Part shown: one piece after another, positions 51,662 to 54,390 of the stretch
How the letters are laid out: each line of letters starts with the position of its first letter
Position numbering within the stretch: position 1 is the stretch's first letter
NCBI RefSeq assembly: GCF_029581575.1
Contig: NZ_CP089975.1
Coordinates: forward strand, 1,426,001 to 1,490,000
Direction of reading: 5' to 3'
DNA: 64,000 nt
Source of the DNA: Moraxella nasibovis
GTDB lineage: Bacteria; Pseudomonadota; Gammaproteobacteria; Pseudomonadales; Moraxellaceae
The notes under the pieces: model-generated
What the model saw: only the letters and a program-made list of their open reading frames with translations
Databases searched by the model: none
Told to the model about the DNA's origin: nothing
Position numbers and translations under genes: made by a program

Positions 51662-51913
51662 TCTGCCGTTTTCGCCATCGCAATCATTCGCAATGGCGAA
51701 ATCCCCCACAAAATGGGTCGTATATGCCACGCTAAGCCCCTTATTTCGCTAAGTTTTGCATCGTCCGACCCATACACCACCGCACCCATCTCGCCCTGCA
51801 ATCAAAGCGAGAGATTAAAACCCCGCAAGGGGGAGGGGGCATCGCACGGCTCGCTGTCGGCGACAAAAAAACAAAACCGCCAGCGTGGGCGGTCTTGTGG
51901 TGGAGAGAAAGGA
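51662..51913. other. Structured spacer between the early operon and the peptide/RNA module
   Basis: A 9-bp hairpin (TTTCGCCAT with ATGGCGAAA, 51670-51701) follows the early operon. A 77-residue frame on the plus strand (51713-51946) has no family resemblance and runs into the opposite gene, so I do not call it. Phage-leader-like GC-rich stretches with AAGCCCC and GAGGGGGC are present. Nothing else is clear. Confidence 0.4.
51870..51893 (-). terminator. Terminator of module A
   Basis: On the minus strand ACCGCC and GGCGGT form a stem followed by TTTTGTTTTTTTG, 20 bases after the stop of the gene at 51914. Confidence 0.75.
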
Positions 51914-52117
51914 TTATTGGTTAAGGGTCTGGTCATGGGCGAGTAAGGCAGCCTTGACGGCTTTGGCGACTGAACCGTAACGCTCAACCAGTCTATCCAG
52001 TGCGGCGAGAGCTTCGGCATCCTTTGGCATGAACTGCACGGTGGTGGAACGCAGAGCCTTGGCGTTGTAATTGGCTTTGGCTCGCTTGGTGTATTCGGTA
52101 TTGGCATAGTTTGACAT
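51914..52117 (-). CDS. Small DNA-binding-type protein, module A
   Basis: The 67-residue protein (start MSNYANTEYTKRAKANYNAK) ends in a helical segment (AEALAALDRLVERYGSVAKA then VKAALLAHDQ) that fits an Arc/CopG-like or antitoxin-like fold. ATG 52117 has AAGGAG seven bases upstream. The gene is the distal part of a transcript that starts with a 21-residue hydrophobic peptide and a structured RNA. The same order is repeated at 52781-53253 with a non-identical partner protein. Confidence 0.65.
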   Translation of the reverse strand: MSNYANTEYTKRAKANYNAKALRSTTVQFMPKDAEALAALDRLVERYGSVAKAVKAALLAHDQTLNQ

Positions 52118-52150
52118 GACAAACTCCTTATGGTAGTATAATCGGTAATG

Positions 52151-52199
52151 TAAGGGGTGGGCGGTGTTTCCAGTCGCCCTGCCGTAGGTTAAACCCTTA
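52151..52199 (-). ncRNA. Candidate structured RNA element, module A
   Basis: Between the peptide and the distal gene, TAAGG (52199-52195) pairs with CCTTA (52155-52151), a GGTT/AACC arm lies near 52187-52195, and GGGCG/CGCCC (52179-52175 with 52163-52159) closes a loop containing TGGAAAC. GGCAGG joins the arms. Module B has the same order with different stem bases but kept pairing (for example GGTTAGG/CCTAGCC), the mark of a conserved RNA fold. Whether it acts in cis or as a separate RNA is unknown. Confidence 0.55.
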
Positions 52200-52210
52200 G
52201 GCACTTGGTA

Positions 52211-52276
52211 TTAGTACGCTGGAGTACTAATCATTACCAAGACCACAACGATCAGAAGTTTTACCAGAACTTTCAT
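52211..52276 (-). CDS. 21-residue hydrophobic peptide, module A
   Basis: The frame from ATG 52276 has AAGGAG seven bases upstream and encodes a lysine-bearing start (MKVLVKLL), a hydrophobic run (IVVVLVMIS) and the end TPAY-stop. Module B encodes a peptide of identical length (MKTALKLI, IVIIALLLLSY-type run, PAY-stop). Such peptides resemble small membrane toxins of type I systems or leader peptides. A clean promoter and hairpin lie upstream. Confidence 0.6.
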   Translation of the reverse strand: MKVLVKLLIVVVLVMISTPAY

Positions 52277-52333
52277 CTCGTTTCTCCTTACAGGTTGTCG
52301 CTGGTTTTGCTTAACAGGTCAGCGAATTAACCT

Positions 52334-52363
52334 ACAAGGCAAGGCTCCTACCCCTTGCCTTGT
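52334..52363 (-). promoter_or_regulatory. 5' hairpin of module A transcript
   Basis: ACAAGGCAAGG (52334-52344) pairs perfectly with CCTTGCCTTGT (52353-52363), loop of eight. It begins at the expected start site, seven bases from the -10 box, so it would cap the 5' end of the RNA. Module B has an analogous hairpin. Confidence 0.65.
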
Positions 52364-52370
52364 TGTTTGT

Positions 52371-52399
52371 ATTATATCCTAGATAGTATATAAAGTCAA
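52371..52399 (-). promoter_or_regulatory. Consensus sigma-70 promoter of module A
   Basis: On the minus strand TTGACT (52399-52394), 17 bases, TATAAT (52376-52371). The start site is predicted near 52364. Module B has the same hexamers and spacing. Confidence 0.8.
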
Positions 52400-52455
52400 G
52401 TAATTTATGCCATAACTGCGTGAATTATTTGGCTTTTTTTATTGCCAAAGCCTTT

Positions 52456-52480
52456 TGTTGTAAATCCATCATCTACAACA
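52456..52480. promoter_or_regulatory. TGTTGTA-N11-TACAACA site, copy 1
   Basis: A perfect 7-bp inverted repeat. Read on the other strand the 25 bases match 62469-62493 in the late divergent promoter at all but one position. The likely binder is the Ogr-type activator encoded at 54406, or another phage regulator. Confidence 0.6.
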
Positions 52481-52528
52481 CGCCATCATTTACCCCCACG
52501 CCATTCATCGACATAATAGCCAACAAGC

Positions 52529-52563
52529 AAAACGCCCAAAGCTGGCAGGCTCTGAGCGTTTTT
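52529..52563. terminator. Hairpin terminator between phage transcripts
   Basis: AAAACGC (52529-52535) pairs with GCGTTTT (52556-52562), with an inner AGC/GCT pairing, and a T-run follows on the plus strand. It could end transcripts arriving from either side. Confidence 0.6.
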
Positions 52564-52602
52564 AATTTAACCCTTTTAATGCAGAAAAGGATATAAACTT
52601 AG

Positions 52603-52755
52603 ATGAATTTTAACATAGATTTTGGGCAGTGGGTAGTAAAAATGCTGGAAAAATATGAAAGTTCCCCAAAAGTAAGATTCTTAATTAACTGGCTGGTGGC
52701 GTGCTTAACAATTTTTGTTTTGGCGAGCCTTATCACAGCAATTCGCTGGTGGTAG
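52603..52755 (+). CDS. Small membrane protein (50 residues)
   Basis: The frame MNFNIDFGQWVVKMLEKYES continues with one membrane helix (LINWLVACLTIFVLASLITA) and ends IRWW. AAAGG lies about 13 bases before the ATG. It points opposite to the peptide modules on both sides and may be part of the same regulatory region. No family assigned. Confidence 0.5.
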   Translation: MNFNIDFGQWVVKMLEKYESSPKVRFLINWLVACLTIFVLASLITAIRWW

Positions 52756-52780
52756 GGCTTGACAAGGGTGTGGTAATGGG

Positions 52781-52981
52781 CTAATCAAACCCCTTTTCGT
52801 ACGCACGCACCGCTTCTACAATGAGCTGGTTTTGGGGCAATCCTAGACGCTCTGCAACTTGTTCAATCATAGCGATGTCATCTAAGTGTAGCTTAAAGGC
52901 TTTGATTTTAATACCCCTTTTAGCATCGCTATCAGCTTGGATTTGGGTGCGTGATTTGGGGTTTGTGGTAACTTTTGGCAT
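52781..52981 (-). CDS. Ribbon-helix-helix-type protein, module B
   Basis: The 66-residue protein has a basic N-terminus (MPKVTTNPKSRTQIQ) and then IKIKAFKLHLDDIAMIEQVA, RLGLPQNQLIVEAVRAYEKG, the strand-helix-helix pattern of Arc/CopG repressors. It follows the second peptide and RNA element. AGGA stands nine bases before ATG 52981. It is analogous to the 51914-52117 protein in place but not clearly homologous by eye. Confidence 0.7.
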   Translation of the reverse strand: MPKVTTNPKSRTQIQADSDAKRGIKIKAFKLHLDDIAMIEQVAERLGLPQNQLIVEAVRAYEKGFD

Positions 52982-53016
52982 TTGACTTTTTCCTATGGGT
53001 TTGTTAATATAAAAGA

Positions 53017-53072
53017 TAAGGAGTGGCTAGGCGTTTCCACCTAACCTGCCTTAGTAGTTCGGAGCTACCTTA
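53017..53072 (-). ncRNA. Candidate structured RNA element, module B
   Basis: TAAGG (53072-53068) pairs with CCTTA (53021-53017); GTAG/CTAC (53068-53065 with 53057-53054) forms a second arm; GGTTAGG/CCTAGCC (53046-53040 with 53031-53025) closes a loop with TGGAAAC. The motif GGCAGG (53050-53045) and the loop are identical to module A while the stems differ with compensation. It ends about 35 bases before the downstream gene. Confidence 0.55.
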
Positions 53073-53083
53073 GGCTTTTACTG

Positions 53084-53149
53084 TTAGTAAGCTGGATAGC
53101 TTAGCAACAGCAGAGCGATGATTACGATTAGTTTAAGTGCCGTTTTCAT
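53084..53149 (-). CDS. 21-residue hydrophobic peptide, module B
   Basis: ATG 53149 has AAGGAG six bases upstream. The product begins MKTALKLI, has a strongly hydrophobic middle and ends SYPAY. Length, charge pattern and last three residues equal those of module A although the middle codons differ, which argues for selection on a real peptide. Confidence 0.6.
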   Translation of the reverse strand: MKTALKLIVIIALLLLSYPAY

Positions 53150-53196
53150 CGTTTACTCCTTGTTTTTTGATGGTAACGATGGCTACCACCTTACCA

Positions 53197-53217
53197 ATCA
53201 AGCAACCCTTGCTTGAT
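53197..53217 (-). promoter_or_regulatory. 5' hairpin of module B transcript
   Basis: ATCAAGCAA (53197-53205) pairs with TTGCTTGAT (53209-53217), loop CCC, beginning at the predicted transcription start. A second stem TGGTA/TACCA follows before the peptide ribosome-binding site. Confidence 0.6.
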
Positions 53218-53224
53218 GGTGTAT

Positions 53225-53253
53225 ATTATAGGTTAAACCTACATTAAAGTCAA
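53225..53253 (-). promoter_or_regulatory. Consensus sigma-70 promoter of module B
   Basis: Minus-strand TTGACT (53253-53248), 17 bases containing the palindrome AGGTTTAACCT, TATAAT (53230-53225). Same arrangement as module A. Confidence 0.8.
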
Positions 53254-53311: not shown

Positions 53312-53341
53312 TTGACAAAAGCTCACTCAATACGCTATGAT
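53312..53341 (+). promoter_or_regulatory. Promoter of the C4-like RNA / antirepressor transcript
   Basis: TTGACA (53312-53317), 18 bases, TATGAT (53336-53341). The start site is predicted near 53348, at the 5' end of the C4-like RNA. Confidence 0.65.
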
Positions 53342-53616: not shown

Positions 53617-54390
53617 ATGAACAATCTTTCTGTTGCCAATATCGCAATCTCCACTTACAACAACCTTTTTTCCTTGAACGATTTGCACAAAGCAAGTGGC
53701 AACGAAAATAAACACCGCCCAACTTTCTTTTTTCAAAACCAACAAACCAAAGACCTAATCCACGAAATTGAAAGCGAAAACACCATTGCCTACCACACCG
53801 TAAACGGTGGTAAAAATCGTGGCACTTATGTCTGTGAAGAACTGGTCTATGCCTATGCGATGTGGATTAGTGCTAAATTCAATCTAATGGTAATCCGAGC
53901 GTTTAAGGCTCTTAATACTGGTGCTATTCCTTGCCTAGCCAAAACCACCACCGACGACCGCCGTCATCTGGTGCAAGCGGTCAATGCCTTGGTTCATAAA
54001 CACAGACTGCCCCACGATGAAGCCTATCGCATGGTGCATCAGTATATGGGCGTTGGTGGTATTGATGAGATTGCCCTTGATGATTTGCCAAAGGCGGTCG
54101 CTTATGTGCATCGTCTGACACTAGGCAGTAGCCATGATGAAACGCACGCTAAGAACAATGCCTTTTGGCGTACTGTTGGCATGATAGAATACGAGCGTCT
54201 GTGTGAAGACCTAGATGCCATCTCATCTGTCATCACCCGAGCAGGGCAAACGCTAGCCAATCTCAATCGTTCAAAGGCGCTGATTTATGACGCCTTGGCT
54301 GAACAGCGAATGGCTTGTCATGGCAAATACGACCGCCAAGCCATCACTGATGAAGCCTATGCTTTCATTGGGCGAGCATATCAACGATAA
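53617..54390 (+). CDS. KilA-N / ORF6C antirepressor-type protein
   Basis: The 257-residue protein has a KilA-N domain (FSLNDLHKASGNENKHRPTF, then VCEELVYAYAMWISAKFNLM) and an ORF6C-type C-terminal region (AVNALVHKHRLPHDEAYRMV). This pairing is found in phage antirepressors that lift CI-type repression. AAGGAG precedes ATG 53617. The C4-like RNA and palindrome upstream fit a controlled antirepressor. Convergent with ogr. Confidence 0.83.
   Translation: MNNLSVANIAISTYNNLFSLNDLHKASGNENKHRPTFFFQNQQTKDLIHEIESENTIAYHTVNGGKNRGTYVCEELVYAYAMWISAKFNLMVIRAFKALNTGAIPCLAKTTTDDRRHLVQAVNALVHKHRLPHDEAYRMVHQYMGVGGIDEIALDDLPKAVAYVHRLTLGSSHDETHAKNNAFWRTVGMIEYERLCEDLDAISSVITRAGQTLANLNRSKALIYDALAEQRMACHGKYDRQAITDEAYAFIGRAYQR

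What the first reader, a model, noticed from the sequence alone, without database searches (positions are those of the whole stretch)
51914..53253. Duplicated module: promoter, 5' hairpin, 21-residue peptide, covarying three-way RNA, small DNA-binding protein
Two adjacent minus-strand units share the same design. Each has TTGACT-N17-TATAAT, a perfect hairpin starting at the expected transcript end, a frame of exactly 21 codons with AAGGAG upstream and ending Pro-Ala-Tyr, then an RNA segment in which TAAGG/CCTTA, a middle arm and a TGGAAAC-loop arm keep pairing while stem bases change (GGGCG/CGCCC against GGTTAGG/CCTAGCC), then a small RHH- or antitoxin-like gene. The differing peptide codons and covarying stems imply selection on both peptide and RNA. 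It could be a phage toxin-antitoxin or leader-peptide attenuation system; I know of no named system with this set.
Basis: partly seen in the sequence, partly recalled or inferred. Interest (0 to 1): 0.85.

Follow-up and report, generated by a model that had tools for sequence, protein, structure and literature searches.

The report
Phage Ibs/Sib toxin-antitoxin pair with repressor
Two neighbouring prophage units each appear to encode a tiny membrane-toxin peptide, an antisense RNA that silences it (relatives of the Ibs/Sib pairs of E. coli), and a small DNA-binding protein that seems to be a private repressor of that toxin's promoter; [quoted passage not shown]

Summary
The 21-residue peptides are Ibs-like (Pfam Ibs_toxin, E 0.0012 and 0.0053, below the curated cut-off). 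The 'three-way RNA' is also a Sib-like antisense RNA on the opposite (+) strand, with its own promoter: Rfam SIB_RNA matches unit A there (E 7.5e-5, below cut-off), and a model built only from Moraxella sequences finds annotated E. coli sibB, sibA and sibC (E 1.5e-7, 4.7e-5, 0.0098). Over 46 copies, 30 of 31 pairs show two-sided changes. So this is a type I toxin-antitoxin module, not leader-peptide attenuation. New here is the third part: in 68 of 74 distinct copies a 62-79 residue gene follows (group A ribbon-helix-helix, group B inferred). The toxin promoter's spacer, significantly palindromic in 12 of 24 clusters, tracks that downstream protein (Mantel r 0.63), not the ibs/sib cassette between them (r 0.00). 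Unit A's operator occurs once in the genome. Best reading: a toxin locked twice, by a dedicated repressor and by antisense RNA, on exchangeable phage cassettes. No experiment was possible.

The parts
53225..53253 (-). Unit A ibs promoter TTGACT-N17-TATAAT
   Evidence: 11 of 12 matches
53229..53241 (-). Unit A operator-like palindrome TAGGTTTAACCTA in the promoter spacer, overlapping the -10
   Evidence: p 0.05 against shuffles for this cluster of 7 units, i.e. borderline and not among the 12 counted as significant; the 17-mer reaching to the -10 occurs once in the genome
53197..53217 (.). Unit A hairpin: 5' end of ibs mRNA (-) and terminator-like end of the antisense RNA (+)
53084..53149 (-). 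ibs-like toxin peptide A, 21 aa
   Evidence: PF13956 E 0.0012; relatives
53014..53168 (+). Sib-like antisense RNA A (model extent)
   Evidence: RF00113 52982-53169 + E 7.5e-5; R1 159 bits (A is in the training set)
52982..53010 (+). Antisense promoter A TTGACT-N17-TAATAT, whose -35 abuts the start codon of repressor gene A
   Evidence: 9 of 12; similar sites in relatives
52781..52981 (-). Ribbon-helix-helix protein A, 66 aa, proposed repressor of ibs promoter A
   Evidence: phrog_3887 E 2.1e-26; RHH_1 in 11 of 16 relatives; Arc/CopG-like fold
52371..52399 (-). Unit B ibs promoter TTGACT-N17-TATAAT
   Evidence: 11 of 12 matches
52373..52390 (-). Unit B operator-like imperfect palindrome TATACTATCTAGGATATA
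   Evidence: (p 0.01, cluster of 5 units)
52334..52363 (.). Unit B hairpin: 5' end of ibs mRNA (-) and terminator-like end of the antisense RNA (+)
52211..52276 (-). ibs-like toxin peptide B, 21 aa
   Evidence: PF13956 E 0.0053
52148..52296 (+). Sib-like antisense RNA B (model extent)
   Evidence: R1 112 bits (B is in the training set); RF00113 only 18.3 bits, E 1.4
52111..52139 (+). Antisense promoter B TTGACA-N17-TAGTAT, overlapping the start of gene B
   Evidence: 10 of 12
51914..52117 (-). Small protein B, 67 aa, proposed divergent ribbon-helix-helix repressor of ibs promoter B
   Evidence: weakly related to phrog_9399 (unknown function; E 0.029); weak ParD2 resemblance; operator tracks it
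51871..51898 (-). Terminator-like site after gene B

Best explanation
Each unit is a three-part, double-locked type I toxin-antitoxin cassette of a Moraxella prophage. (1) The minus-strand transcript encodes an Ibs-type 21-residue membrane toxin. (2) A + strand promoter makes a Sib-type antisense RNA covering the toxin ribosome-binding site and ORF and so blocks its translation. (3) The gene after the toxin encodes a small (ribbon-helix-helix) protein that binds a palindrome between -35 and -10 of the toxin promoter and represses toxin and itself. Shown here by sequence: homology to Ibs/Sib, the covarying RNA, the antisense promoters, and the coupling of promoter spacer to downstream protein independently of the toxin cassette. 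Inferred: toxicity, RNA silencing, DNA binding, cotranscription of toxin and repressor, and the role in prophage maintenance or exclusion of other phages.
For: Peptides match PF13956 Ibs_toxin. RF00113 SIB_RNA matches the + strand of unit A and a place in 6 of 22 Moraxella genomes at E<=0.001 (none over the cut-off). Model R1, made from 14 Moraxella antisense sequences, finds sibB, sibA and sibC at their annotated place and strand. Covariation: 30 of 31 pairs over 46 rows, 0 of 500 shuffles reach it. Wobble counts favour the antisense strand, 161 G-U against 72 A-C. Antisense promoter scores 9.7 against 7.8 in shuffles. Repressor: palindromes at p<0.05 in 12 of 24 promoter clusters with the gene against 0 of 4 clusters without. 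Spacer distance follows protein distance (Mantel r 0.63, p<=0.001; 0.62 after controlling flank, gap and downstream) but not ibs/sib distance (r 0.00) in 44 units; cluster AMI 0.67-0.70 against 0.11-0.17. In group A, K at strand position 27 goes with right half-site CCTA (12 of 17), A/I with ACTA (5 of 5). A copy found later, L132, has the operator that its A27 protein predicts. In the genus, 20 of 25 places of the two protein families sit beside an R1 match.
Against: Both peptides and both RNAs score below the curated Pfam and Rfam cut-offs; RF00113 does not find unit B on its own (E 1.4). Minimum free energy does not favour the antisense strand (lower in 17 of 46), and the middle arm leans the other way (15 G-U, 20 A-C). 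Alignment A3 is fitted to the model, so counts lean to it. 12 of 24 promoter clusters with the gene have no palindrome at p<0.05, among them unit A's own cluster (borderline, p 0.05) and the L030 type (p 0.91). Small couplings with other parts exist: peptide with spacer r 0.10 (p 0.009), body-spacer AMI 0.11-0.17 (p 0.004-0.048). Group A's fold match has no Foldseek E under 0.5; group B has no Pfam RHH match and only a weak fold match. The position-27 association may rest on one or two evolutionary events, and L132's protein is a close relative of the L039 type. No expression, toxicity or binding data.
Confidence: 0.83

Rival explanations
1. Plain Ibs/Sib type I toxin-antitoxin; the downstream DNA-binding gene regulates something else in the phage and is merely a neighbour.
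For: Six of 74 units, and the E. coli copies, lack the gene; one intact orphan gene exists with no Ibs-like ORF in the 600 bases upstream (L134).
Against: Spacer type follows the protein, not the intervening ibs/sib or the flank; the 17-mer operator of unit A occurs once in the genome, at the ibs promoter; 22 of 25 places of these proteins in the genus lie beside an R1 match or an ibs-like ORF.
Confidence: 0.12
2. Leader-peptide attenuator: translation of the 21-codon frame controls folding of the sense RNA and so expression of the downstream gene.
For: Order promoter-peptide-RNA-gene; the sense strand folds as well as the antisense; the GGAAAC arm in unit A has a G-U on the sense strand where the antisense has A-C (read).
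Against: No minus-strand terminator-like site before the gene; copies without the gene keep peptide and RNA; homology to Ibs/Sib; conserved antisense promoter.
Confidence: 0.03
3. Type II toxin-antitoxin in which the RHH protein is the antitoxin of the hydrophobic peptide by direct binding.
For: RHH proteins are often type II antitoxins (general knowledge); the fold rows include MazE, VapBC, ParDE and AtaTR chains.
Against: Peptide and antisense RNA are conserved without the protein in six units; protein type and ibs body are nearly independent (Mantel 0.07, p 0.04), unlike a binding pair.
Confidence: 0.03

Closest known systems
Ibs/Sib type I toxin-antitoxin of Escherichia coli (PF13956, RF00113)
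   Same: 18-21 residue hydrophobic peptide mostly ending S-x-x-A-Y; antisense RNA over the whole ORF and ribosome-binding site; closing stem pairing 5' and 3' ends of the antisense RNA; hairpin over the C-terminal codons; tandem copies.
   Different: Found on phages; an extra middle arm not seen in the fold of SibC; followed by a DNA-binding gene in 68 of 74 units; palindrome in many toxin promoters; below the curated Pfam/Rfam cut-offs.
LexA-controlled type I toxins (tisB/istR, symE/symR, dinQ/agrB)
   Same: Transcriptional repressor plus antisense RNA, two locks (PMC4147584, passages read).
   Different: There the repressor is the host's global LexA; here it is encoded in the cassette and its operator varies with it.
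Phage cargo gene followed by a dedicated autorepressor, as in acr-aca operons
   Same: Small cargo gene, then a DNA-binding protein acting on an inverted repeat in the promoter (comparison from general knowledge; the Aca2 paper PMC8434428 was seen only in a search listing with the start of its abstract).
   Different: Aca2 is described there as HTH; the cargo here is a toxin peptide with antisense RNA; no homology was tested.
CopG/Arc ribbon-helix-helix repressors
   Different: About 22-residue N-terminal extension; proposed target is a type I toxin promoter.

Membership tests
Ibs/Sib type I toxin-antitoxin | Short strongly hydrophobic peptide related to Ibs | tested here: met
   PF13956 E 0.0012 and 0.0053 (curated cut-off 27 bits not reached, 19.3 and 17.2); 35 distinct 21-residue peptides, residues 4-16 on average 92% VILMFAWCT, S17 in 30, A20 in 29 and Y21 in 29 of 35
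Ibs/Sib type I toxin-antitoxin | Antisense RNA related to Sib, on the opposite strand, covering ORF and ribosome-binding site | tested here: met
   Unit A RF00113 + strand E 7.5e-5; unit B not by RF00113 (E 1.4) but by R1, which it helped to train; R1 finds E. coli sibB/A/C; Rfam cut-off 56 bits not reached
Ibs/Sib type I toxin-antitoxin | Own promoter for the antisense RNA | tested here: met
   by sequence only: (66 of 68 units score >=9, some at another place than usual; 6 of 74 left out)
Ibs/Sib type I toxin-antitoxin | Peptide toxic, antisense RNA protective | not testable with these tools
   needs expression
Ribbon-helix-helix DNA-binding proteins (group A, unit A) | RHH fold | tested here: met
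   RHH_1 in 11 of 16 relatives at E<=0.1, best 9.3e-5 (unit A itself 0.053, below cut-off); CopG by profile E 0.0045; Arc/CopG lead the structure comparison, with Foldseek E 0.51 for CopG
Ribbon-helix-helix DNA-binding proteins (group B, unit B) | RHH fold | tested here: inconclusive
Ribbon-helix-helix DNA-binding proteins (group A, unit A) | Binds operator at the ibs promoter | not testable with these tools
   only statistical coupling
Leader-peptide attenuator | Conditional terminator between peptide and downstream gene | tested here: not met
   none among the terminator-like sites on the minus strand between peptide and gene in either unit

The most novel reading that the evidence does not exclude
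A new architecture of toxin-antitoxin system, in which a protein repressor with its operator flanks an exchangeable toxin/antisense-RNA cassette, and in which operator types define specificity groups among phages. A replicating superinfecting phage that carries the same operator could titrate the resident repressor and release the toxin, so that the module works as a type-specific exclusion sensor.
Probability: 0.2. Interest if true: 0.82.

Novelty: new variant of a known kind. Interest (0 to 1): 0.62.

Why it matters
It places Ibs/Sib-type toxins in Moraxella and relatives on phages, where toxin-antitoxin systems often bear on phage conflict, and adds a dedicated protein repressor to a type I system. 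The many natural protein-operator pairings around similar toxin cassettes are a ready specificity series: which strand residues of a small repressor read which half-site, and what releases a doubly locked toxin, both become directly testable. It also warns that annotation misses such modules: in the four phage records looked at, the repressor is a 'hypothetical protein' and neither peptide nor antisense RNA is annotated (in one of them an unrelated antisense ORF is).

Tried and rejected
Attenuation and type II readings: see rivals. Rfam at gathering threshold: only a tRNA in the window. NCBIfam: nothing for the peptides. Plasmid collection: only short chance-like matches. DNA search with unit B alone in phages: no match. 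R1 in samples of the class (369 genomes) and order (293): only the window's own genome; stricter filters, so weak copies may be lost. The 12 Mannheimia phage records were not followed up; no Mannheimia record matched the unit A toxin part. Fold energy as a strand test: undecided. Foldseek: nothing at E<=0.001 for either model. Other copies of the operators in the window: three two-mismatch sites for A (chance mean 0.72 matches), none for B. Papers: searches listed no work on Ibs/Sib in Moraxella; two searches listed none whose title or abstract start describes a type I toxin with its own cassette-encoded repressor; one search found nothing. The library is partial; key Ibs papers (Fozo 2008, 2010; the second recalled) were not read here.

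Rows dropped: of 111 R1 matches went into the unit table (left out: 9 repeats in L038, L043, L056, L060; 3 E. coli; 2 reverse or secondary; L087, L119 and a 42-base piece of L103), plus one diverged unit of L012 added by hand, giving 95 and, after removal of identical units, 74. Searches used 44 non-redundant of the 68 units with a downstream gene. The pattern missed one group A protein among these 44 (L074, K27 with CCTA), with which the count would be 13 of 18.

Full report
Observation. The window lies in a 2.23 Mb single-contig genome, and other genomes of its genus carry the same thing. Scanning the genome collection (84,980 species by its description) for an exact 22-base signature of unit A found three contigs, all Moraxella by title; records very near the window's own genome may be left out there.

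The peptides. Both match Pfam Ibs_toxin, below the cut-off. Relatives make the case: 35 distinct 21-residue peptides, on average 92% hydrophobic from residue 4 to 16 and mostly ending S-x-x-A-Y (S in 30, A in 29, Y in 29 of 35). One Moraxella copy, MIKLLLIIILLLISLPAY, is close to E. coli IbsB, MMKLLIIVVLLVISFPAY. The peptide frame is open in all 74 units by construction of the table; the other two sense frames are open in 0 and 29 of 74.

The RNA. Rfam SIB_RNA matches the + strand, i.e. antisense to the peptide, in unit A (E 7.5e-5) and not significantly in unit B (E 1.4). I built a model from 14 Moraxella antisense sequences. It finds the annotated E. coli sibB, sibA and sibC on the right strand (sibC weakly, E 0.0098), so the relation holds in both directions. 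It finds 25 places in 10 of 22 Moraxella genomes and hits in 17 of 299 genomes of the family, in 3 of 16 genera. Over 46 rows 87.4% of cells pair and 30 of 31 pairs have changes on both sides, against 22.4 in shuffles and 10-22 in slid versions. Because Watson-Crick pairs hold on both strands, I counted wobbles: 161 G-U against 72 A-C on the antisense strand, strongest in the closing stem that includes the anti-Shine-Dalgarno (53:11) and in the first arm (22:2), also in the start-codon arm (71:39), opposite in the middle arm (15:20); energies do not decide. The alignment was fitted to the model, so this leans. The sense RNA probably folds likewise; the antisense promoter (mean 9.7 against 7.8 shuffled; 66 of 68 units at 9 or more, some best sites off the usual place, 6 of 74 units not scored) and the Sib homology are what place the regulator on the + strand. 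The mRNA's 5' hairpins read as terminator-like on the + strand.

The third part. Of 74 distinct units, 68 have a 62-79 residue gene starting 69-122 bases after the toxin stop; L051 (three tandem copies), L052, L058 and L065 do not. Of the 68, 37 are of group A and 31 of group B. Group A (unit A) is ribbon-helix-helix by sequence and fold. Group B (unit B) is only likely so. Listing promoters by downstream protein suggested a different palindrome for each protein type. Palindromes exceed shuffles at p<0.05 in 12 of 24 promoter clusters with the gene and in 0 of 4 without; unit B's cluster is among the 12 (p 0.01), unit A's is borderline (p 0.05). In 44 non-redundant units the spacer distance correlates with the protein distance (r 0.63) and not with the ibs/sib body (0.00) or leader (0.02), though these lie between or beside them; the peptide correlates slightly (0.10, p 0.009). 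Controlling the upstream flank, the gap and the downstream sequence leaves r 0.62; with the protein, the flank correlates at 0.19, the gap at 0.22 and the downstream sequence at 0.15. Pairs with similar protein but different body have median spacer distance 0.46 (87 pairs); similar body but different protein, 0.83 (63 pairs). Cluster-level mutual information agrees (0.67-0.70 with the protein, 0.11-0.17 with the body, the latter small but nominally significant). Natural swaps show it plainly: L046 and L059 have nearly the same ibs but different proteins and spacers; L048 and L055 share protein type and spacer with different ibs. In group A, strand residue 27 K goes with the right half-site CCTA in 12 of 17 and A/I with ACTA in 5 of 5 (relatedness not corrected; one unit missed by the pattern would make it 13 of 18). 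L132, found later by protein search and not by R1, carries an A27 protein close to the L039 type, a quite different ibs-like ORF, and TAGTATTTACTA. In the genus 25 places encode these proteins: 20 lie beside an R1 match (by coordinates), two beside an ibs-like ORF that R1 misses (L012/L135 and L132), and three without an Ibs-like ORF in the 600 bases upstream (L134 intact; L136 with four in-frame stops; L152 a fragment). The 17-mer operator of unit A occurs once in the genome, with up to one mismatch allowed.

Mechanism. Shown by sequence: homology, covariation, antisense promoter, protein-spacer coupling. Inferred from Ibs/Sib (PMC4147584 and PMC8309996, passages read): the peptide depolarises the membrane, and the antisense RNA blocks its translation. 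Inferred: the protein represses the toxin promoter and, through cotranscription, itself. The antisense -35 abuts (A) or overlaps (B) the start of the repressor gene, so toxin/repressor and antisense transcription converge. A plausible use is that the RNA covers the moment of infection, before repressor has accumulated, and the repressor covers lysogeny; what releases the toxin is unknown.

Known or new. Ibs/Sib is known; type I toxins under LexA are known. A type I module with its own cassette-encoded repressor was not seen in the listings, in a partial library. The Moraxella catarrhalis prophage paper PMC4619438 (passages found by term) discusses HicB antitoxins and has no occurrence of Ibs, antisense or ribbon. 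I rate it a new variant of a known kind.

Noticed in passing
window 52603-52755 (+): 50-residue ORF with a hydrophobic C-terminal half, between the two units, matching phrog_6632 (unknown function, E 1e-16). The stretch has DNA matches in M. catarrhalis phages Mcat14, 20, 24, 29-32; in the two looked at, Mcat14 and Mcat20, it lies next to coat genes.
   Followed up: partly
L051/L004 (unnamed Moraxella genome G003, contig 15): Three tandem ibs/sib units without repressor gene or significant palindrome, like the tandem copies of E. coli.
   Followed up: partly
L088, L136, L152: Decayed copies: an ibs with a different reading frame after residue 12, a group A protein gene with four in-frame stops, and a truncated group B gene.
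   Followed up: no
L132 and L012 (unit near 2098): A diverged ibs/sib branch with peptides of the type IILVL-ILL-SSS, missed by the RNA model but with the same promoter and downstream-gene arrangement.
   Followed up: partly
L030, L031, L032, L034 (Moraxella phages Mcat28, 9, 7, 25): In four phage records the cassette sits on the opposite strand from its neighbours (annotated tail or hypothetical proteins), as cargo; of the cassette only the repressor gene is annotated.
   Followed up: partly
window 53312-53341 (+): TTGACA-N18-TATGAT promoter-like site upstream of the + strand ORF 53617-54390, next to the module.
   Followed up: no
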